From Ornithodoros turicata (lineage: Eukaryota > Arthropoda > Arachnida > Ixodida > Argasidae), in the NCBI RefSeq assembly GCF_037126465.1, contig NC_088202.1, positions 99,789,962 through 99,853,961 on the forward strand: a stretch of DNA of 64,000 nt, given 5' to 3'. Below are positions 16,611 through 62,252 of this stretch, piece after piece. The notes below the pieces were generated by a model. The model was not told the origin of the DNA and did no database searches. It saw only the letters and a list, made by a program, of their open reading frames with translations. Each line of letters starts with the position of its first letter. Position 1 is the first letter of the stretch. The position numbers and the translations under genes were made by a program.

Positions 16611-16867
16611 CCCTTCTCGGTAGCTCACTCGGTAACGTGTTAGCTTGCAGAGCTCAAGGTCGCGGGTTCAAACCGGGCCGAGGACGGTAGCAATGTGAGG
16701 GAGGTAAACATTGCTTCCAGCACCGTGTGTCGGAGAGTTCCGGCGCATGTCAAAAGAACCCCAGGTGGTCGAAATGATCCGCAGTCCTACCCTGCGGCAC
16801 CTTCAACATGCCGCCATACTATAGGCAGACAAACCTTACGTGTAACATCACGGCACCGTTATCATAC
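16611..16867 (+). mobile_element. tRNA-derived SINE with intact 13-bp target duplication
   Basis: The head has an A box (TAGCTCACTCGG, 16621-16632) and a B box (GGTTCAAACC, 16665-16674), spaced as in tRNA. The body carries the words AACCCCAGGTGGTCGAAAT and ATCCGCAGTCCTACCCTG, shared with 42622-42833. CACGACAAGTAGA flanks it exactly at 16598-16610 and 16868-16880, a target-site duplication made by LINE-type target-primed insertion. Borders are therefore precise. It is non-coding and would rely on a partner LINE. Confidence 0.85.
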
Positions 16868-32057: not shown

Positions 32058-33200
32058 TAGATGATGATGATGATGATTGAAAGAAAAAAAAAGGGGATTG
32101 TAGCCCTCATCACGAGGGCTGGCTACCCCAGATCACCTAAGGAAAGGAATGCCAGACACATCCACCCACACCCACTGGAGATGTCGCGAAGCGGCGACGA
32201 ACGCCACAGACAGGGTCATAGCCCATCTAACAGCTTGGTGTCCCTTAAAAACTGTGTAACGGCTCGCAAAGGTGGCATTTGAGTGCTCGCTGGCCATGGG
32301 CCCAGCACCTTCTGCACTCCGAAGGGTCGATTGTCAACCCGGCCTAACGCGGCTACAAGTCTGTCACGACACTCAGAGTATCTTTGGCACGTAACTATAA
32401 TATGTTCGACGTCTTCGATTGAGCCACAGACTGGACAATTAGGAGAGTCCGCCTTCCCAAGCCTGTACAGGAGTCTTGCACTGTATGGTACATTGAGCCG
32501 GAGCCTGTGAAACAATGACGTAAGCAGCCGTGGCATGGATGATGGGAGGACCAGGGCTAGTTCGGGGTCAACCCGGTGCAGAAGGGAAGATCCAGCCTCG
32601 CCACAAAACCATTGATTTTTTGACAGCTTATGGCTCAGAGACTTTAAGGCACTCTTGGCGTCCGCCTTCGTGAAGTAAACACTGCGGAATGTACTATTTC
32701 CATATGCTTTCCCGACGTTGTGATCAGCTGCATCATGTCCGGTGATGCCACAGTGGCCAGGTATCCACCGGAAAATCACGTCATGGCCAGCGATCACTGC
32801 TTTTTGGTGCGCTACTAGTATGTGATTCAGTACAGGAGCTGAGAGGTGGTGTGTTCCCGGTGTCATAAAAAGCGGTAAGCTTTAAAGCTTTTAAGCTGTA
32901 AAGCGGCTTTAGAATCACAGAAAATCACCCATTTTCCCTGGGAAGGCGCGCACGAGATATGCTCTATGGCTAGAAGAAGAGCGTGTAGCTGCTGCGTAGT
33001 GCTGTAGCTGCTGCGTGTGCTGCTGTCGATGAAGTACGATGCGATAGTCGAGCACTGCGCGCAGTATTCGACGCTGGTACAACGCAGGCACAGGCGGATC
33101 CTGTAGATATTATGGAGCCATCCGCATATACCGCCGTGTGATCATCCAGACGTTGTATGATTCTAGAGTCTCCACTTAACGCGCCCATTCTCTGCGTTTT
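32058..33200 (-). pseudogene. I-like LINE 3' end: RNase H and C-terminal knuckle
   Basis: On the minus strand the RNase H domain starts with YADGSI (about 33130), continues with WVIFCDSKAALQ (about 32910) and closes with WIPGHCGITGHDAAD (about 32750). At least two frameshifts split these parts. The 216-codon frame 32216-32866 then carries FHRLRLNVPYSARLLYRLG and an intact C-x2-C-x7-H-x4-C knuckle (CPVCGSIEDVEHIIVTC). A short 3' untranslated region follows and ends in a (TGATGA)-type tail at 32060-32077. RNase H plus knuckle plus trinucleotide tail is typical of I-clade LINEs. The copy is 5'-truncated at about 33.2 kb. Confidence 0.75.
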
Positions 33201-42621: not shown

Positions 42622-42833
42622 TCGTGGCGGGTTCGATCCCGGCCGAGGGCGGTAGCAATGTGAGGGAGGTAAACATTACTTCCAGTACCGTGTGTCGGAG
42701 TTTTCCGGCGCCCGTCAAAATAACCCCAGGTGGTCGAAATTATCCGCAGTCCTACCCTGTAGCACGTGCAACTTGTCGCCACACTGCGCAGACAAACCTA
42801 ACGTGTAACATCACGGTATCATTATTATTATTT
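42622..42833 (+). mobile_element. tRNA-derived SINE (same family as 16611-16867), 5' truncated
   Basis: A B box (GGTTCGATCCC, 42630-42640), the words GGCGGTAGCAATGTGAGGGA and TAACCCCAGGTGGTCGAAAT, and a (TTA)n end near 42822-42833 match the 16.6-kb SINE. The A-box region is missing or decayed. It interrupts the LINE between its reverse transcriptase and RNase H. Confidence 0.75.
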
Positions 42834-44116: not shown

Positions 44117-45071
44117 TACGAGGAGCGTTCAAGTCAAACCGGGACTTTACATTTTTCGCAAAAGTAAAATGAACTTACAGGCGAGAAATTAGTTTTATTT
44201 TTCAACGTAATCTCCAGCTGGCACTAATGCGCTTGTCCCAGCGTTTCACGAGGGCTTGGATGCCAGCAGCGTAGAAATCCTTACCGGCGCGTAGCAGCCA
44301 TGATCGGACCGCATTCTTGACCTCGTTGTCGCAGCTGAAGTGGCGGCCCCCAAGAAACGCCTTCAGTGTTCGGAAGAGATGGAAATCGGTGGGGACGAGG
44401 TCTGGACTGTAAGAGGGATGTGGCAGCAACTCCCAGCCAAGTTCCTGTACGGTGCGTGTCATGAGACGCGCGGTATGCGGGCGTGCATTGTCCTGTAGGA
44501 GGAGGAGTCCTTTGGTGATGAGGCCCGGCCGCTTTTGCTTCAGCGCCTTATGCACATCCCTGAGAACCTGGCAGTAATATGCACTATTGATGGTGGTACC
44601 ACTGGGCAGAAAATCAACTGAACAACGCGAGCCTTGTCCCAGAAAACCGTAGCCATGACATTACCCGCAGACGGGGTGCTACGGAACTTCTTGGGAGCTG
44701 GCGTGCCCGTATGCTTCCACTGTTTTGATGCGCGTTTAGACTCAGGAGTGAAATGGTGCACCCACGTTTCATCGCATGTGATGATCCGATCAAGGAACGG
44801 CTGTCCTTCAGTTTCGAAACCGTACTTAGCTCTTGGGAGATTTCCAATCTTCTCTGCCGGTTAAACACGGAGAGCTGCCTCGGGACCCAACGGGCACTAA
44901 CTTTCCGAAACTGGAGGTGTTCATGAATGATAGTGTTCAACGTTCCCACAACGGTTCGTCTTTCGAGCCAGTTCGAGACATGTTATCCGTCGTTCCTTGA
45001 GGAGGAAGTAGCGCGAGCCATTTGTACACTCAGGAGACAGAACGTCCCGGTTTGACTTGAACACCCCTCGT
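44117..45071 (-). mobile_element. Internally deleted mariner transposon, nested in a LINE
   Basis: Terminal inverted repeats of 29 bp (44117-44145 and 45043-45071, two mismatches) share TTCAAGTCAAACCGGGAC. Each end carries the TA target dinucleotide duplicated by Tc1/mariner insertion (44117-44118 and 45070-45071). The total of about 955 bp is shorter than the usual 1.3 kb, and most of the DNA-binding part of the transposase is deleted. It splits the LINE reverse transcriptase between 45072 and 44116. Confidence 0.9.
44202..45021 (-). pseudogene. Mariner transposase (D,D34D), broken
   Basis: The frame begins MARATSSSRNDG at about 45020, then jumps to HEHLQFRKVSARWVPRQLS, so roughly the helix-turn-helix half is gone. 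The catalytic core is recognisable across three frames: CDETWVHHFTPESKRASKQW (first Asp), LLQDNARPHTARL (second Asp, intact 117-codon frame 44202-44555) and YSPDLVPTDFHLF (third Asp, with exactly 34 residues between the last two). Two frameshifts, near 44800 and 44630, disrupt it. All three catalytic Asp codons persist, so inactivation is through frameshifts and the deletion. Position and ends are explained in the mobile_element entry. Confidence 0.85.
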
Positions 45072-46914: not shown

Positions 46915-47193
46915 CCGGCCTCGGTGGCTCAGTCGGTAGCGTGTTCGCCTACTGATCCCGAGATCGCGGGTTCGAACCCGGCCGAGGACGCCAGCAACTT
47001 GGTGGCAGGGTACAAGTTGCTTACGCCGTCTTCCGCGAGGGACGTTAAATACGGGGTTCCGTGTGATGAGCTTTCATCGCACGTTAAAGAACCCTCAGGT
47101 GGGCAAAAGCAATCCACAGACCGACCGCTGTGGCGTCGCTCATGATCTCAGTTGTCTCGCGACGTAAACACCCAATTATTATTATTATTATTA
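46915..47193 (+). mobile_element. tRNA-derived SINE with 13-bp target duplication
   Basis: The head has GGCTCAGTCGGTAGCG (A box, 46927 onwards) and GGTTCGAACCC (B box, 46969-46979). The body includes GACGTTAAATACGGGGT and CACGTTAAAGAACCCTCAGG, and the end is a (TTA)n tail. TTGTCCTTTTTAT is duplicated at 46902-46914 and 47194-47206. It is the same family as 60374-60646 but distinct in body from the 16.6-kb family, although the tRNA-like heads are related. Confidence 0.88.
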
Positions 47194-51057: not shown

Positions 51058-51272
51058 ATGCGTATACGAAGAGGGGAGTCAAGTCCTGTAGATCACATAA
51101 ACAAAATACAGAAGCCGACACTGAAGATTTTTGTTTAAGTTTAATTTGTACAAGCTTTCGCGTGGAGGTCCACGCTTCCTCAGGTACGTGAGGAAGCGTG
51201 GACCTCCACGCGAAAGCTTGTACAAATTAAACTTAAACAAAAATCTTCAGTGTCGGCTTCTGTATTTTGTTT
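51058..51272 (-). mobile_element. Short insertion with near-perfect palindrome and 14-bp target duplication
   Basis: AAGCATCAGTATAG flanks the stretch exactly at 51044-51057 and 51273-51286. Within it, 51098-51185 and 51186-51273 form a 176-bp palindrome with a single mismatch (51183/51188). The minus strand of the left arm carries hammerhead-like core B. The 14-bp duplication suggests target-primed insertion of a Penelope-derived fragment; the alternative is a sequencing or assembly foldback, which the direct repeats argue against. Confidence 0.65.
51156..51183 (-). ncRNA. Hammerhead-ribozyme-like core B
   Basis: The minus strand reads CTGAGGA, one A, a perfect 7-bp hairpin (GCGTGGA-CC-TCCACGC), then GAAAGCTTGTAC. 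It has the same arrangement as cores A and D and the strongest stem II. The mirror copy on the plus strand (51188-51215) has GTGAGGA in place of CTGAGGA, so it lacks the invariant first C. Cleavage site not identified. Confidence 0.45.
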
Positions 51273-51301
51273 AAGCATCAGTATAGTTAAATTTGACAAG
51301 C

Positions 51302-53384: not shown

Positions 53385-53389
53385 GAGGG
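53385..53389. repeat. 5-bp target-site duplication, left
   Basis: GAGGG here matches GAGGG at 59892-59896, immediately outside the two LTRs. Five bases is usual for Ty3/gypsy integrases. Confidence 0.85.
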
Positions 53390-54014
53390 AGTAAAGTTTC
53401 TCCTTTCCGTAGAGGGGTTCGGTGATGTGTTGCGAGTACGGTAGCCGCTTGCAGGAGACGTCCGACGAGATGGATAACTCAACAGCAACAATATTTAATA
53501 CAAATATATACAAGGCATATACATATCAAGGCAAAGGCTTACTGATTGAGAACTCGGGGGACATGAGGCGACAAGGTCCCAGACCTTCCGGTGGTGAAAG
53601 TCCCCGCTCGAGCTGTCGCAAATTAGCGGGTGTCCGCTTATAAAGACCACAATTGGCCGCTGCCCACCAACATGGTAGCGCCAATCAAAACATTCAAAAG
53701 AAAGCGAAACCAACTGTCTAATTGGTTACATTAACTAGGTTGGACACGTGAAATCCTCCGCCCCCACTTGGACTAAATCTGTTAATCCCGTCCGCCATCT
53801 TGGACATGTCGTAGTGTCCACAGTGCTTTCGGCTCAAGGGATTGCCTCTATAGGGCCACAAAAGCGAGCTGACCAAATGGGTCACGAGTGGCGGAGTTCC
53901 AAGAAGAGCAGCTGTCGCGCGAGAGCACAAAGAGTTATTCAACTGGTCGTTCAGTCTGGCGACGATGGAGGCGAAAATAAAAATGTTTTCGTAGTTACAG
54001 GTTTAACCTTTACA
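53390..54014 (-). repeat. 3' LTR (625 bp)
   Basis: On the minus strand the LTR starts TGTAAAGG and ends CTTTACT, so the ends are imperfect inverted repeats. It carries a TATA box (TTTATAAG, plus positions 53637-53645) and an ATTAAA signal (53494-53499). It appears identical to 59267-59891. Confidence 0.95.
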
Positions 54015-54025
54015 CCTCCCTCCTT
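54015..54025 (-). promoter_or_regulatory. Polypurine tract
   Basis: AAGGAGGGAGG on the minus strand abuts the start of the 3' LTR, the position where plus-strand DNA synthesis is primed. Confidence 0.8.
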
Positions 54026-54342
54026 AGATTCGTTGTGGGGCATAGTTGAACCACAAGGAATAAACTACAGACGGGTTAAACACACTAGCATAGAAATAAT
54101 CACCCGTGTACAAATTCATCACTCGTGTGACACTACTGAACATGCAATACAACGTGACAGTGCTTGCAACGACAAGCTCTGAAAATGGTACGTGTTGCTG
54201 TTGAAACGCATTATGTCAGTACATTGAACAGACACTAAAATTATGGCGGAAAAACACAAAAGTTCCTTAGAACAAAGTGGTGAGAGCGAGTGACTCTCGA
54301 GGTTCACACATACATTGCAACGCACCTGCTCTAGCCTAATTC

Positions 54343-57300
54343 CTACTCAAACCGCAACCGCGATAGAGCGTCCGCATTCCCGTGCGCGCTTCCCTTGCGG
54401 TGAACAATTTTCACATTATAACGCTGGAGTGCAAGAGCCCAGCGCGCGAGCTTCGAACCCTGTGGTGTCGTACAGGTCAGGTATGAAAGAGGATTGTGGT
54501 CGGACACCACAGTTACTTGTGCCCCGAACACCCAATGATCGAATTTCTTGAGCGCCCAGATGACCGCGAACGCCTCTCGTTCAATCGCCGCCCACCGAGC
54601 CTGCGTGTCCGAAAATCGGTGGCTTGCGAACGATATGGGCACTTCTTTGCCATTGCGGTCCTTTTGGGCTAGGCATGCTCCAGCCGCCAACGCTGACGCG
54701 TCCGTAAATACCCAATACGGTTTTTCGGGGTCAGGTGTTGTCAGTGCTACTGCGTCTTTTAAACTCGATTTGAGGGCCTGAAAGGAGGCTTCGGCTTCGT
54801 TATCCCACGGGATCTTGTTCGGGACCCTTTTCCCGGTCAGCCGCGTTAGAGGGGTCGCTATCTTTGCATAATCCTTAACATAGTCGCGGTAATAGCCGCA
54901 CAACCCAAGTACGCTCCTGAGCTCCTTTTTTGAAGTTGGACGCTTCAGCTCAGATATGGTTTTGATCTTTTCTGGATCGGGTGCGTGACTTCCTGATCCC
55001 ACAATGTGCCCTAGATAGCGGATAGAACTTCGCGCTATCTGACACTTAGATAAATTCGCCGTTAACTTCGTGGCTTTTAACGTGGTTAGTACCGCCTCCA
55101 AATGGTGCAGGTGACCCTCCCATGTTTCCGAGTACACGGCTATGTCATCAAGGTAAGCACAGGCATGCTCCTGGTGCTTCGCGAGGATGGCGTTTACTGT
55201 CCGCTGGAACGTCGCTGCTGCGTTTTTGAGGCCAAACGGCATCACCCGCCACGCAAATTGACCGAAATGCGTAACAAACGCGGTCTTTTCTTGGCTGTTT
55301 ACCTCAAGGGGAATTTGCCAGTATCCCCGGCGTAGATCTAGCAAGGTGATGAACCGCGCCCTTCCTACGCGAAAAACTAGCTCCTGTTGAAGTTCCATTG
55401 GGTACGCGTCATCTATTGTGTCAGCGTTAAGCGCCCTATAGTCCACGCAGAGACGGACTCCACCGTCTTTCTTAGTAACACAGACGACGGGGTGGGAGTA
55501 CTCAGTGACGATAGGATACACCAGCCCTTGTTCGAGCAATTCATTGACTTGCTGTTCTACTTCTTTCCGAAGCAATTGAGGTGTGCGGTAAGGATGGGAC
55601 CGTTTCGGGACGTGCCCCTCACGCAACTTTATAACATGCGCACCTACATCTGCAACTTTGGGGGCGTCCACGAACACTGTCGCGAATGACTGAAATAGTC
55701 GCCTGACCTGATTGGCTTCACTTTCCCCCAAATGCGAAGTTGCCTCGGCTGGCAAGACAGACTGCCCTTTGTCCCTTTTTGTCGGCGCGGGTTCCACATC
55801 CCCAAATTCCTCCTCTCCTTGGAAAATGACTCCTACGTGATTCACCCTGGCCTTGTAGGCCCTTAAATTGTTGGCATGAATCGTGCGCGTTTTTCCGTCG
55901 TCCGTTAGTACATCATACGAGTGCTGTCGTCGTTTCCCTATTACTTGGTAGGGGCCCTTCCACTTTGCCTGATGCTTTGCTGATCGGCTGGTATCGAAAA
56001 CAATAACCTGGTCGCCAGGTTGGAATTGTTTTTGCTTTGTTTTGCGATTGTGCTGCTCCACGTACCGCGCTTGCCGCTTTTCGGTAACTAGCCCTGCAGT
56101 TTCTGCCGCCGCCTTGAACATTTCTCTCAAATGTTCGAGATATTTGGTGGGCGCCTCTCGGAGCTGAACTGGGGGTCCTACCTGCCCTTCCCAGGTATTC
56201 TTTAGAATTGCTAGCGGGCCTGTTGGTTGTCTACCGTAGAGAAGTTGAAACGGTGACACACCCGTGGTGTCGTGCGGGACTTCTCTGTACGCCCATAAGA
56301 GAAAAGGGATGTACCTATCCCAGTTTCTGGGGTCGTCCCGTACCACGTGAAATAGCATGCGGCGGAACACACGGTTCCACCGCTCGACCGCCCCGTTACT
56401 TTCGTGGTGTTCTGCCGTCGAGAAGCGTGGGGAACACCCGATTCTCCTGAGGAACTCCTGGGTTAAGTGCGACGTGAAGTTGCTGCCCTGATCGCAACAG
56501 ATAGTTTCCGGGATACCTGTCCGCGAGAAGATTTCGAGCAGCGCGTCACACGTTTTCTTTGCGGTCGGGGACGTAAGGCAAATCACTTCGGGCCAACGAG
56601 TATGAAGGTCGGTGACACAAAGTGCGTATTTGTGCCCGCGTGCCGACGCGATCTCGAACGGGCCTACCACATCCACGTTCACTGCTTGAAATGGGTAGTC
56701 TGGTCGCGTGAGTGGCGCGATAGGTACCCTGTCTTTTGCATTCCTGTCCGCGTTAACCTGACATCCGTGGCATGTTGCACAGTGCTCTCGAACGTCCTTT
56801 TCAATCCCCGGCCAATAGAAAGTCGCCTTAATGCGATTTAGCGTTTTTCGCATTCCAAGATGGCCTCCCCACGGCGTATCGTGCGCGAGCTGGAGGACTT
56901 GTCGCCGTTTACCATCGGGTAAAACGAGCTGTTTTACTTTTTGCCCCGCTACTGTATCCCTGTGATAAAGGATACCGTCGTCAATGAGCATACCGTGAGC
57001 GCCTGCTTTACCCTGTTCCCACGCGTCCACGAGGCTCGTGTCCTCACGCTGGGCTGATCTGAATACGCTTCTCTCGCCGGCCTCAGCGTCGGTCCCTCCC
57101 GACGTGCTTTTTACCGCGTTCACCACCGCGATGTGTTCGGCACCGCCGCAGTCCGCGTCCTCTTGCAGGAATAACCCCGCTAAACCCGCGTCTAGCTCGT
57201 CTGTGTATTCTGCTTCCACGGTAGCCGCTGCGTTTAGCGCGTCCGGTTCCTCGACACTCCGAATGGCATCCCACGCTTCTAGTGATAGGAGGCAATCTAC

Positions 57301-58722
57301 ATCTCCGGCTAGCTTTTCGGTAAAAGCGCACTCTACTGGGACGACTTTGTTAACTTCTACCTGGTCGCTGCTTGTGCCTATCAGCCTGACGGGTAGTACG
57401 CCCAATTCCGCGGCTACCTTGTGTCCGAAGGCGGATTCGAGCCACAGCGGGCTTAGTGCATCACCTCTGCGCTCGGGAAAAAGATCCGCGCGAACAACGG
57501 TCACGTCCGCCCCACTGTCTATCAGTGCGCGAAATTTTTGTGTCCCACATTGCAATTGAACCTCGCGAATGGGGAGAGTCAGCTGCTCTTTATCTCCCGT
57601 AGCCGCTGGGCTGACGCGCGCCACCAACGTAGTATTCTCTACCTGTGCGTCATCAGATGCATTTTGGACTTCGTCGTCCCTAGCTATCACAACACGGTTC
57701 ACGCGTCTTTGTGCAGAATCCTTGTTGTCTGCTGCTTTAGGAGCTGTGTGGTCACCGTCTGGTGACCTTTTTTTGGGACAATTTCTTGCAAAATGTTTCC
57801 CTCCACATACGTAGCAGGAAAACCCGTTCTTTGTCTCTTGACGGTCTTTCCCGTTCCCTTTTTGTTGGGAGTTCTTATCATCTTTCCCTCTGTCTTTGTG
57901 GCTTTCTTTACGGCGGTCGGAAGCTCCCTTGTCTCTGTGGCCTAGAACTGCGCTTCCCCTGCCCTTAGCATCCTCGAATTTCTCCACTGCTTTTACAATG
58001 TCGCTTTCGGAGGGTTTGACGTCGGTGATCTGGAGCGTTACAAATTGTCGAGCCTCCTCTGTCAGCGAGTCTACGAACCTGTCAGCGATGATCAACGTTA
58101 TCAAGTCGTCGTAACTTTTGACCTCGCGTGCTTTAGCGTATGCGGCGATATAACTGCGTAGCCTGGCCCAGTAGTTCGACCATGTTTCGTCCCTCCCTTT
58201 GACTGCTTCTGAAAAGCGCTTCCTATATTCGCCCGGGGACAAACGGAGTGCTGCTAGCACGGCCTCCTTTACCGTTTGGTAGTCGTCTAGCTCGTCGGTG
58301 GTTAGCTTTGAGTACAAGTGACCTACCCTGCTTGCGATAAGCGGTAATATGAGGTGACTTTGAACCTCCTCGGGTACTTTGTAGGATTTGAAAACACCTT
58401 CTACTCCCTCAAACCACATGGGCACTTCGCGGTCGGCTGGTAGCGGAAGCAAAACGCTCTTAAGCCTTTTTGAAAAGTAGGCCAGATTTTCTTCGCGCGT
58501 TCGTGTAGTCGACGCTTCACTGTATGGCGAGCGGTCATCTCGAAATCGCTCAAGTTCTATTCTCCGTGATCGTTCTTTTTCCAGTTCGATCTGGAGCCGC
58601 AAGATTTCGACGCTAACGGTTTCGGTAGCGCCTGCGCCAGAAGCAGTGTTACTTCTGTTTTCGTCTGCCATTTCTGTGTCGAATTTTGCCTTCTTTTGCT
58701 TCGCCCTCAAGCGAGTAAGCAT
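54343..58722 (-). CDS. Gag-protease-integrase-RT-RNase H polyprotein of a Gmr1-like retrotransposon
   Basis: One uninterrupted frame of 1459 codons. Residues about 70-260 are a Gag-like region; the basic stretch 262-300 leads to a zinc knuckle C303-x2-C306-x3-H310-x4-C315, one residue shorter than the usual C-x2-C-x4-H-x4-C. The protease has LIDSGADVTVV (Asp402). The integrase has H614/H621/C651/C654, then D684, D744 and E780 with 35 residues between the last two, and a GPY/F-type module with WKGPY at 921-925. The reverse transcriptase spans about 1040-1245 with YLDD at 1190-1193; RNase H has FTDAS (Asp1341), Glu1383, Asp1408 and Asp1451. All expected catalytic residues are present. No frameshift or stop separates gag from pol, so one polyprotein is expected, cut by its protease. 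A second in-frame Met (residue 18) is an alternative start. Confidence 0.93.
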   Translation of the reverse strand: MLTRLRAKQKKAKFDTEMADENRSNTASGAGATETVSVEILRLQIELEKERSRRIELERFRDDRSPYSEASTTRTREENLAYFSKRLKSVLLPLPADREVPMWFEGVEGVFKSYKVPEEVQSHLILPLIASRVGHLYSKLTTDELDDYQTVKEAVLAALRLSPGEYRKRFSEAVKGRDETWSNYWARLRSYIAAYAKAREVKSYDDLITLIIADRFVDSLTEEARQFVTLQITDVKPSESDIVKAVEKFEDAKGRGSAVLGHRDKGASDRRKESHKDRGKDDKNSQQKGNGKDRQETKNGFSCYVCGGKHFARNCPKKRSPDGDHTAPKAADNKDSAQRRVNRVVIARDDEVQNASDDAQVENTTLVARVSPAATGDKEQLTLPIREVQLQCGTQKFRALIDSGADVTVVRADLFPERRGDALSPLWLESAFGHKVAAELGVLPVRLIGTSSDQVEVNKVVPVECAFTEKLAGDVDCLLSLEAWDAIRSVEEPDALNAAATVEAEYTDELDAGLAGLFLQEDADCGGAEHIAVVNAVKSTSGGTDAEAGERSVFRSAQREDTSLVDAWEQGKAGAHGMLIDDGILYHRDTVAGQKVKQLVLPDGKRRQVLQLAHDTPWGGHLGMRKTLNRIKATFYWPGIEKDVREHCATCHGCQVNADRNAKDRVPIAPLTRPDYPFQAVNVDVVGPFEIASARGHKYALCVTDLHTRWPEVICLTSPTAKKTCDALLEIFSRTGIPETICCDQGSNFTSHLTQEFLRRIGCSPRFSTAEHHESNGAVERWNRVFRRMLFHVVRDDPRNWDRYIPFLLWAYREVPHDTTGVSPFQLLYGRQPTGPLAILKNTWEGQVGPPVQLREAPTKYLEHLREMFKAAAETAGLVTEKRQARYVEQHNRKTKQKQFQPGDQVIVFDTSRSAKHQAKWKGPYQVIGKRRQHSYDVLTDDGKTRTIHANNLRAYKARVNHVGVIFQGEEEFGDVEPAPTKRDKGQSVLPAEATSHLGESEANQVRRLFQSFATVFVDAPKVADVGAHVIKLREGHVPKRSHPYRTPQLLRKEVEQQVNELLEQGLVYPIVTEYSHPVVCVTKKDGGVRLCVDYRALNADTIDDAYPMELQQELVFRVGRARFITLLDLRRGYWQIPLEVNSQEKTAFVTHFGQFAWRVMPFGLKNAAATFQRTVNAILAKHQEHACAYLDDIAVYSETWEGHLHHLEAVLTTLKATKLTANLSKCQIARSSIRYLGHIVGSGSHAPDPEKIKTISELKRPTSKKELRSVLGLCGYYRDYVKDYAKIATPLTRLTGKRVPNKIPWDNEAEASFQALKSSLKDAVALTTPDPEKPYWVFTDASALAAGACLAQKDRNGKEVPISFASHRFSDTQARWAAIEREAFAVIWALKKFDHWVFGAQVTVVSDHNPLSYLTCTTPQGSKLARWALALQRYNVKIVHRKGSAHGNADALSRLRFE

Positions 58723-59266
58723 TAACTATTGTTCGACACCCTAGTTTTCCCGCTCGGCTCTGTTCGCTCGACCAAACCAGTCGGTATCATGTGAACCCAC
58801 TGACACTATCGGACACTAGAAAGATCGTCCTGCCACACCGGAACTCTGAGATACACAATAACTAAACCCTACGCGGTAGCTATCTACTCGTGAACCTCAA
58901 GAGCAACCAATTCTCACCTACCTCGTGAAATTGTTTCGAAGCTCTTCCGTGGATGACGTTTTCTTTCACCCTGTGCCGACACTTCAGTGTCCGTTGTTTC
59001 TCACTTTCGTCGCCGTCGTCGAAGCTGTGCTGGCTCCCCTGACGCGGTCACGTTCACACACTGCACACCCGGTCCTCGTTGACTAGTTGTGGCTCTCCGT
59101 TGATGACCTGGACTTGTCCGCTCAGTTTCCTGGACAGTCCGCTGCTTTTGCTGCCTTGCTTGACTTCGATGCGTACCTTGATTCTTGCTGTTCTCCTGGA
59201 GGCATTCACTCGTCCGTCGAGATGCTTCAGCTCTCCGTAGATGGACACATCCTGTCGTGCTGCGCC
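58723..59266 (-). other. 5' leader of the LTR element
   Basis: This 544-bp stretch between the 5' LTR and the gag start has no long frame. It should hold the primer site (adjacent to 59266) and packaging signals. Confidence 0.7.
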
Positions 59267-59267
59267 A
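59248..59267 (-). promoter_or_regulatory. Primer-binding site
   Basis: The minus strand reads TGGCGCAGCACGACAGGATG, the T being the last LTR base. It would pair with a tRNA ending ...CTGTCGTGCTGCGCCA. A discriminator G before CCA is a feature of eukaryotic tRNA-Ser, so a serine tRNA primer is possible, but this is inference. Confidence 0.6.
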
Positions 59268-59891
59268 GTAAAGTTTCTCCTTTCCGTAGAGGGGTTCGGT
59301 GATGTGTTGCGAGTACGGTAGCCGCTTGCAGGAGACGTCCGACGAGATGGATAACTCAACAGCAACAATATTTAATACAAATATATACAAGGCATATACA
59401 TATCAAGGCAAAGGCTTACTGATTGAGAACTCGGGGGACATGAGGCGACAAGGTCCCAGACCTTCCGGTGGTGAAAGTCCCCGCTCGAGCTGTCGCAAAT
59501 TAGCGGGTGTCCGCTTATAAAGACCACAATTGGCCGCTGCCCACCAACATGGTAGCGCCAATCAAAACATTCAAAAGAAAGCGAAACCAACTGTCTAATT
59601 GGTTACATTAACTAGGTTGGACACGTGAAATCCTCCGCCCCCACTTGGACTAAATCTGTTAATCCCGTCCGCCATCTTGGACATGTCGTAGTGTCCACAG
59701 TGCTTTCGGCTCAAGGGATTGCCTCTATAGGGCCACAAAAGCGAGCTGACCAAATGGGTCACGAGTGGCGGAGTTCCAAGAAGAGCAGCTGTCGCGCGAG
59801 AGCACAAAGAGTTATTCAACTGGTCGTTCAGTCTGGCGACGATGGAGGCGAAAATAAAAATGTTTTCGTAGTTACAGGTTTAACCTTTACA
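59267..59891 (-). repeat. 5' LTR (625 bp) with promoter
   Basis: The minus-strand TATA box CTTTATAAG lies at 59514-59522, so transcription should begin roughly 25-30 bases further on, leaving a long U3. The ATTAAA signal (59371-59376) lies downstream in R/U5. It appears identical to the 3' LTR. Confidence 0.95.
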
Positions 59892-59896
59892 GAGGG
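59892..59896. repeat. 5-bp target-site duplication, right
   Basis: GAGGG, matching 53385-53389. Confidence 0.85.
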
Positions 59897-60373: not shown

Positions 60374-60646
60374 ACCGGCCTCGGTGGCTCTGTCGGTAGC
60401 GTGTTCGCCTTCTGATCCCGAGATCGCGGGTTGGAACCCGGCCGAGGACATTAGCAACTTGGTGATAGGGTATAAGTTGCTTAGACACGCCGTCTTCCGC
60501 GACGGACGTTAAATACGGGGTGCCGTGTGATGAGCATTCATCGCACGTTAAAGAACCCTCAGGTGGGCAAAATCAATCCACAGACCGACCGCTGTGGCGT
60601 TGTTCATGATCTCAGTGGTCTTGCGACGTAAACCCCCAATTATATA
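60374..60646 (+). mobile_element. tRNA-derived SINE with 12-bp target duplication
   Basis: It matches 46915-47193 almost throughout: GGCTCTGTCGGTAGCGTGTT in the A-box region, GGTTGGAACCC as a B box with one change (60429-60439), and GACGTTAAATACGGGGTGCC in the body. GCATATAAGTTC is duplicated at 60362-60373 and 60647-60658. The mutated B box suggests that it no longer transcribes well. Confidence 0.88.
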
Positions 60647-62023: not shown

Positions 62024-62027
62024 TATG

Positions 62028-62248
62028 CAGGGTGTCTCACGTAACGTGTCAATAAATTTTATTTGAAGAGAGCAATAAAAGAAAAAACGACCGCTACTTT
62101 TCTGCTACTTGAGTTACAAACAGGTGCTACATCAAAAGTATCAAAGTATCACCTGTTTGTAACTCAAGTAGCAGAAAAGTAGGGGTCGTTTTTGCTTTTA
62201 TTGCTCTCTTTAAATAAAATTTATTGACACGTTACAAGAACCGCCCTG
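62028..62248. mobile_element. Foldback MITE, family A copy 2
   Basis: The ends are CAGGGTGTCTCACGTAACGT and an imperfect inverse. The inner part is an almost perfect hairpin (TTTCTGCTACTTGAGTTACA ... TGTAACTCAAGTAGCAGAAA). TATG is duplicated at 62024-62027 and 62249-62252. It shares ends and inner stem sequence with 28842-29095. Confidence 0.82.
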
Positions 62249-62252
62249 TATG

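What the first reader, a model, noticed from the sequence alone, without database searches (positions are those of the whole stretch)
53390..59891. Intact Ty3/gypsy retrotransposon with integrase upstream of reverse transcriptase (Gmr1-like) in a probable tick
Seen directly: a single frame has protease Asp402, integrase H614/H621/C651/C654 and D684/D744/E780, then YLDD at 1190-1193 and RNase H at the C-terminus. Known: Ty3/gypsy and retroviral elements place integrase last, and only the Gmr1-like group keeps gypsy-type domains in copia order; it was first described from deuterostomes. Inference: this is an arthropod (probably chelicerate) member, possibly a distinct lineage, or evidence of horizontal transfer or deeper ancestry of this order.
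Basis: partly seen in the sequence, partly recalled or inferred. Interest (0 to 1): 0.88.

Follow-up and report, generated by a model that had tools for sequence, protein, structure and literature searches.

The report
Tick retrotransposon with integrase moved forward
This is a complete copy-and-paste mobile element, very likely from a soft tick, whose integrase lies ahead of its reverse transcriptase; it groups with a known but unusual animal-wide family (Gmr1-like), and near-identical copies with matching ends and duplicated target sites suggest that it likely jumped recently with its parts in this order.

Summary
[quoted passage not shown] The host is very likely Ornithodoros turicata, by three exact contig-length matches. 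It is not a rearranged single copy: the 30 best-matching loci read from the same genome (of 101 matches) are IN-first, as are all 115 of the 120 listed database relatives that hold both domains. Of 20 other integrase places sampled in the genome, 14 are RT-first, none IN-first, 6 undecided. RT and combined IN+RT trees separate IN-first from RT-first elements (96/93 and 100/99); IN alone does not resolve it. Tick, scorpion and spider elements form a branch apart from frog, mollusc and sponge ones. The predicted Gag capsid has a SCAN-type fold, as expected for Gmr1-like elements. Of ten near-identical copies, six (window included) have identical LTR pairs. It is a Gmr1-like element, a known kind; crustacean members were printed in 2013, and no tick or arachnid report was found in the searches made. 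Horizontal transfer is not supported; a deep chelicerate lineage is.

The parts
53390..54014 (-). 3' LTR, 625 bp
   Evidence: 100% identical to 59267-59891
59267..59891 (-). 5' LTR, 625 bp; TGTAAAG...CTTTACT on the coding strand
53385..53389 (.). target site duplication GAGGG, one side
59892..59896 (.). target site duplication GAGGG, other side
59250..59267 (-). candidate primer binding site TGGCGCAGCACGACAGGA (its first T is the last base of the LTR); resemblance to a tRNA-Ser 3' end is recalled, not tested
   Evidence: GGCGCAGC follows the 5' LTR in all 8 of the 9 other copies whose 5' LTR was found
54015..54025 (-). candidate polypurine tract AAGGAGGGAGG beside the 3' LTR
   Evidence: last 8 bases the same in 8 of 9 other copies, one change in the ninth
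54343..58722 (-). single Gag-Pol ORF, 1459 aa
57958..58245 (-). Gag capsid C-terminal lobe, residues about 160-255, predicted SCAN fold
57778..57816 (-). Gag zinc knuckle C303-C306-H310-C315, spacing CX2CX3HX4C (one residue shorter than the usual CX2CX4HX4C, recalled)
   Evidence: sequence; Pfam zf-CCHC only E 0.66
57313..57555 (-). aspartic protease, D402 in IDSG
   Evidence: RVP matches 18 of the 26 rows of alignment A3
56323..56925 (-). integrase H2C2 zinc domain and DDE core, residues 600-800
   Evidence: Pfam PF17921 and PF00665; residues checked
55843..56025 (-). integrase C-terminal GPY/F-like module, residues about 900-960 (WKGPY at 921-925), between the IN core and RT
   Evidence: motif name recalled; SH3_Tf2-1 in 14 of the 26 rows of alignment A3, but no family above cut-off in the window's own stretch
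54346..55602 (-). reverse transcriptase and RNase H, residues 1041-1459, YLDD at 1190-1193

Best explanation
This is a complete Gmr1-like Ty3/gypsy LTR retrotransposon, very likely of the soft tick Ornithodoros turicata, coded in one 1459-aa frame in the order Gag, protease, integrase, reverse transcriptase, RNase H, and it likely still moves by reverse transcription and integration with its parts in that order. Shown by sequence: identical LTRs, 5-bp target duplication, candidate primer site and polypurine tract, the catalytic residues, one open frame, and ten near-identical copies in the genome, of which six (this one included) have perfectly matching LTR pairs at different target sites. Inferred: the RNA runs from LTR to LTR; the single polyprotein is cut by its own protease, so that the place of integrase in the chain matters little for its work; Gag with a SCAN-type capsid lobe would build the particle; a tRNA would prime DNA synthesis; the freed integrase would insert the copy with a 5-base stagger. 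The order is likely inherited from one ancient rearrangement shared by sponge, mollusc, frog and chelicerate elements.
For: Anatomy. Same order in relatives: of the best 120 of 3655 proteins, 115 hold both domains and all 115 are IN-first; 4 hold only RT and 1 only IN; 109 of 110 further proteins IN-first, 1 a tandem gene model. Same order in the host genome: 30 of 30 loci returned, the best of 101 matches, the window's own included. Controls with the opposite order: 116 of 120 relatives of a conventional element RT-first, 2 tandem models, 2 with one domain missing; of 20 host-genome integrase places picked from 150 listed, 14 RT-first, 0 IN-first, 6 without a usable RT. Trees: RT-RNase H separates IN-first from RT-first rows at 96/93, IN+RT at 100/100 and 100/99 with ten conventional elements of the same genome; the window is sister to an O. 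turicata element in RT, IN and combined trees. IN-to-RT spacing: median 238 aa in the 203 of 230 proteins that could be measured. Gag SCAN-type fold. Copies: ten places at 98-100% aa identity in RT-RNase H, nine with no stop in the match and open frames of 1457-1480 codons, one with a TGA. LTR pairs of the ten: six identical, one with 1 mismatch, one with 2 mismatches and 8 gap positions, one with a truncated 5' LTR, one whose 5' LTR was not found. Target duplications: GAGGG, GAGGG, CCCCC, GCATC, ACAAC, GGCTC, GGTTA, exact in 7 copies; an eighth agrees at 4 of 5 bases.
Against: IN alone (201 columns) does not recover the IN-first rows as one group once more outgroups are added (8% of bootstrap trees; rows L005, L006 and L007 fall among them), although the tree that holds the conventional rows together has the higher likelihood (3.75 units, p-AU 0.63). 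The SCAN match is under Pfam's cut-off by sequence and no Foldseek match reaches E 0.001. No transcript, protein or movement was observed. The primer tRNA was not identified: the genome pattern search did not complete. Solo LTRs and older copies were not counted, since the LTR search did not complete.
Confidence: 0.92

Rival explanations
1. The IN-first order arose independently in chelicerates by rearrangement of a conventional gypsy element, so this is a look-alike of Gmr1, not a relative.
For: IN-only tree is unresolved; the branch to the chelicerate elements is long (1.15); Gag SCAN is weak by sequence.
Against: RT tree 96/93 and combined trees 100/100 and 100/99 keep the IN-first rows together; IN-RT spacing is nearly the same in the tick- and spider-rich part of the list (median 243, n 79) and in the rest (median 237, n 124); the window capsid matches three SCAN-bearing Gags, one from a frog, at E 5.5e-6 to 1.2e-4 in a search of 120 proteins.
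Confidence: 0.05
2. A conventional element rearranged in this copy only, or a misassembly.
For: None found.
Against: 30 of 30 loci read in the same genome have the same order; intact LTRs, target duplication and a single open frame; proteins of other ticks share the order.
Confidence: 0.01
3. A Ty1/copia element, for which this order is normal.
For: The order itself.
Against: IN scores 82.8 bits with PFV integrase and 62.4 with Ty3, but 21.9 with chain 7z0h_W (listed as Integrase; that it is Ty1's is recalled); the best RT-RNase H match is Ty3, 225 bits; Pfam hits are the H2C2 and RT_RNaseH families.
Confidence: 0.01
4. The element entered ticks recently by horizontal transfer from another phylum.
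For: Very young copies; related elements in frogs, molluscs and sponges.
Against: Its neighbours are tick, then scorpion and spider, elements (100/98 and 100/100); two tick lineages each hold soft- and hard-tick members; the best of the 120 listed relatives is an O. turicata protein at 67%. Ten of 28 rows of the clade carry no host name, so transfer from an unnamed source is not excluded.
Confidence: 0.03

Closest known systems
Gmr1-like clade of Ty3/gypsy (Gmr1 of Gadus morhua; Goodwin and Poulter 2002, not read, known through PMC3587641, PMC2582038 and others, passages)
   Same: Gypsy-type pol with IN upstream of RT; RT and combined trees put it with other IN-first elements; capsid with a SCAN-type lobe
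   Different: Falls in a separate chelicerate branch; SCAN recognisable by predicted fold rather than above the sequence cut-off; not compared with the Gmr1 sequence itself
Crustacean Gmr1-like elements GyRex4, Gychoro2, GyMaja1, GyLiva4 (PMC3587641, passages read)
   Same: Arthropod hosts, Gmr1 clade
   Different: GyRex4 and GyRex5 are partial RT/RNase H and IN pieces; here a complete element with LTRs, target duplication and copies. No sequence comparison was made
Unnamed predicted protein P0003 of O. turicata (LOC135398463)
   Same: Same order, 67% identity over 860 aa, sister in RT, IN and combined trees
   Different: A different family, on a contig of the same length as C6 of what is very likely the same genome
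Tick clades Mag, CsRn1, Squirrel, Toxo (Ixodes scapularis genome, PMC4748124, passages read)
   Same: Ty3/gypsy in a tick, GPY/F integrase
   Different: Described with two ORFs, TG..CA ends and 4-bp duplications; here one ORF, TG..CT ends and 5-bp duplication. The passages seen do not mention domain order or Gmr1
Ty3 of yeast
   Same: RT-RNase H 225 bits, IN 62 bits
   Different: IN after RNase H

Membership tests
Gmr1-like Ty3/gypsy | IN upstream of RT in a gypsy-type pol | tested here: met
Gmr1-like Ty3/gypsy | RT-RNase H groups with other IN-first elements, apart from conventional ones | tested here: met
   96/93; IN+RT 100/99
Gmr1-like Ty3/gypsy | IN alone groups with other IN-first elements, apart from conventional ones | tested here: inconclusive
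   84/68; two changes, p-AU 0.63
Gmr1-like Ty3/gypsy | Gag capsid with SCAN-type C-terminal lobe | tested here: met
   Met by predicted fold and by similarity to SCAN-bearing Gags; Pfam's own cut-off is not reached (15.3 of 27 bits)
Gmr1-like Ty3/gypsy | Direct similarity to the Gadus morhua Gmr1 sequence | not tested
   No record named Gmr1 appeared in the 120-row listings
LTR retrotransposon | Paired LTRs, PBS, PPT, target duplication, RT and IN | tested here: met
   the primer tRNA itself is untested
Conventional Ty3/gypsy | IN after RNase H | tested here: not met
Ty1/copia | Copia-type IN and RT | tested here: not met
   Chain 7z0h_W (Ty1 IN, recalled) 21.9 bits against Ty3 62.4 and PFV 82.8; best RT match Ty3

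The most novel reading that the evidence does not exclude
Ticks, scorpions and spiders carry their own deep branch of integrase-first gypsy elements, separate from the vertebrate, mollusc and sponge Gmr1 branch; the domain swap happened once before these branches parted, and the branch is still multiplying in a soft tick.
Probability: 0.5. Interest if true: 0.55.

Novelty: new member of a known kind. Interest (0 to 1): 0.4.

Why it matters
Gmr1-like elements are the exception to the usual gypsy order and the reported source of the vertebrate SCAN domain. A tick family with several near-identical, freshly inserted copies suggests that this order is compatible with integration today, extends the group to chelicerates with a complete element, and offers a SCAN-type capsid far from vertebrates. 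It extends a known group rather than making a new kind.

Tried and rejected
Chimera, copia membership, misassembly and horizontal transfer were considered and set aside (see rivals). IMG/VR scans gave nothing. The bacterial genome scan gave nine contigs with gypsy-type RT; by tblastn L001 and L002 are IN-first, L003-L007 RT-first, L008 and L009 show no IN. The AU test on chelicerate plus RT-first rows (p 0.48) says nothing about independent origin, because in an unrooted tree that split only means that the remaining IN-first rows hold together.

Rows used and dropped. One search took 51 of the 120 proteins, 8 of the 120 and 7 of 9 contaminant loci. Eight partial or tandem models were dropped before the trees. 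One search added 6 of the 110 new proteins and 3 host loci, and thinned seven rows; the IN tree used the matching set. Searches left out L007 and rows without both domains (Ty3, L011); one search also left out L017, L028 and nine thinned rows, and of the 20 sampled host loci used the 8 with long enough pieces of both domains. In one search the tandem model P0138 was first counted as IN-first; one search shows it to be RT-first twice over.

Paper searches: in open-licence PubMed Central papers only. One search (Gmr1, retrotransposon, tick, gypsy) found none; (Gmr1, spider, gypsy) only the crustacean paper; (Gmr1, arthropod, LTR retrotransposon) found five, four of them already seen, the fifth about a legume. 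Of the papers only passages were read; Goodwin and Poulter 2002 and Emerson and Thomas 2011 were not read.
Full report
What is there. The window holds, on its minus strand, a complete LTR retrotransposon at 53390-59891. The LTRs are 625 bp and identical, and GAGGG flanks both sides. One frame, 54343-58722, codes 1459 aa. Pfam and residue checks give Gag with a short-spaced zinc knuckle, protease (D402), integrase zinc domain and DDE core, a WKGPY module, RT (YLDD 1190-1193) and RNase H, in that order. In Ty3 the same comparison puts RT-RNase H at 599-1009 and IN at 1088-1282.

Host. The window lies in a 1.07-Gb genome of 379 contigs. Contigs C1, C2 and C6 are 235,596,939, 150,342,175 and 74,607,816 bases long, exactly the lengths given for contigs that carry proteins named Ornithodoros turicata (P0016 and P0031; P0017; P0003). 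Two further O. turicata lengths (84,440,111 and 42,056,132) are not among the contigs whose length I saw (list), which do not include all large contigs. The host is thus very likely this soft tick; the identification rests on these lengths.

Not a freak copy. An RT-RNase H search of the host genome scored 100 of 13,639 candidates, so counts are lower bounds; it listed 101 matches, ten places at 98-100% aa identity, nine of them with open frames of 1457-1480 codons and one with a TGA. The 30 best loci, the window's own among them, all have IN upstream of RT. Conventional elements lie in the same genome: of 20 integrase places that I picked across the 150 listed H2C2 matches (150 of 9557 candidates scored), 14 have RT before IN, none the reverse, and 6 showed no usable RT in the 6-kb stretch. 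Of the first eight loci, six have RT upstream of IN, one RNase H upstream, one is undecided.

Relatives. The IN-RT-RNase H part found 3655 proteins at E 1e-10 or better among 7983 scored; the best 120 were listed. Among these 115 hold both domains, all IN-first; 4 hold only RT and 1 only IN. Named genera are those of ticks (Ornithodoros, Amblyomma, Dermacentor, Ixodes, Haemaphysalis, Rhipicephalus), a scorpion (Centruroides), spiders (Araneus, Argiope, Stegodyphus, Trichonephila, Parasteatoda), a frog (Rana), a mollusc (Ylistrum) and a sponge (Amphimedon). A second IN-first set gave 110 new proteins, 109 IN-first and one tandem model. A control set drawn with a conventional element gave 116 of 120 RT-first, 2 tandem models and 2 with one domain missing. 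Both IN-first lists were ranked by similarity to an IN-first query, and the 30 host loci likewise, so agreement within them is expected in part; the two RT-first samples show that the measure can come out the other way.

Trees. RT-RNase H: IN-first against RT-first 96/88 and 96/93 with tick conventional elements added. IN: 84/68, unresolved with more outgroups. Combined: 100/100 and 100/99 with ten conventional elements of the host genome. In the RT, IN and combined trees the window pairs with an O. turicata element (99-100% bootstrap), so RT and IN share one history. Tick, scorpion and spider elements form a clade at 100/99 to 100/100 (92/96). It also holds rows without a host name (10 of 28), so its limitation to chelicerates is likely, not shown. 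Two tick lineages each hold soft and hard ticks. The IN-to-RT spacing is 238 aa at the median in the 203 of 230 proteins measured; eleven lie outside 225-265. That the split is the root of the IN-first group is assumed from placing the root among RT-first elements.

Recent movement. LTR pairs of the nine other copies were sought: five are identical, one has 1 mismatch, one has 2 mismatches and 8 gap positions, one has a truncated 5' LTR, and in one the 5' LTR was not found. With the window six of ten pairs are identical. Seven copies have exact 5-bp duplications and an eighth agrees at 4 of 5 bases. The identical pairs differ from the window's LTR by 2 to 6 bases and sit in different flanks, so they are separate insertions. 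With a recalled neutral rate near 3e-9 per site and year, each would be under about one million years old; the rate for ticks was not tested, and gene conversion between LTRs could also keep pairs alike. Solo LTRs were not counted, because the LTR search of the genome did not complete.

Verdict. A Gmr1-like element, complete and probably recently active, very likely in a soft tick: a known kind in a host group for which my paper searches found no report. Crustacean and annelid members are in print, and a mollusc study names the group's odd order. The deep chelicerate branch and the single ancient origin of the order are the parts worth a specialist's time.

Noticed in passing
window 44205-44660 (-): Remnant of a mariner-type transposase (Pfam Transposase_1 E 2.1e-7, DDE_3 7.8e-5).
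   Followed up: no
window 51098-51273 and 62025-62251: Two near-perfect palindromes (176 bp at 98.9%; 106-nt arms at 91%), MITE-like or foldback repeats.
   Followed up: no
window 60375-60643 and 46915-47179; 42624-42816 and 16659-16853: Dispersed direct repeats at 92% and 87% identity.
   Followed up: no
window 32219-32881 (-): 221-aa open frame with a weak RNase H match (E 4e-4, under the cut-off), perhaps a non-LTR element remnant.
   Followed up: no
L001-L009: Contigs filed under bacterial or archaeal MAGs carry gypsy-type reverse transcriptases, so these bins likely hold eukaryotic contamination.
   Followed up: partly
window 57778-57816 (-): Gag zinc knuckle is one residue shorter than the usual spacing (CX2CX3HX4C).
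   Followed up: no
target sites of copies: Three of seven exact duplications are runs of G or near it (GAGGG twice, CCCCC); too few to call a preference.
   Followed up: no
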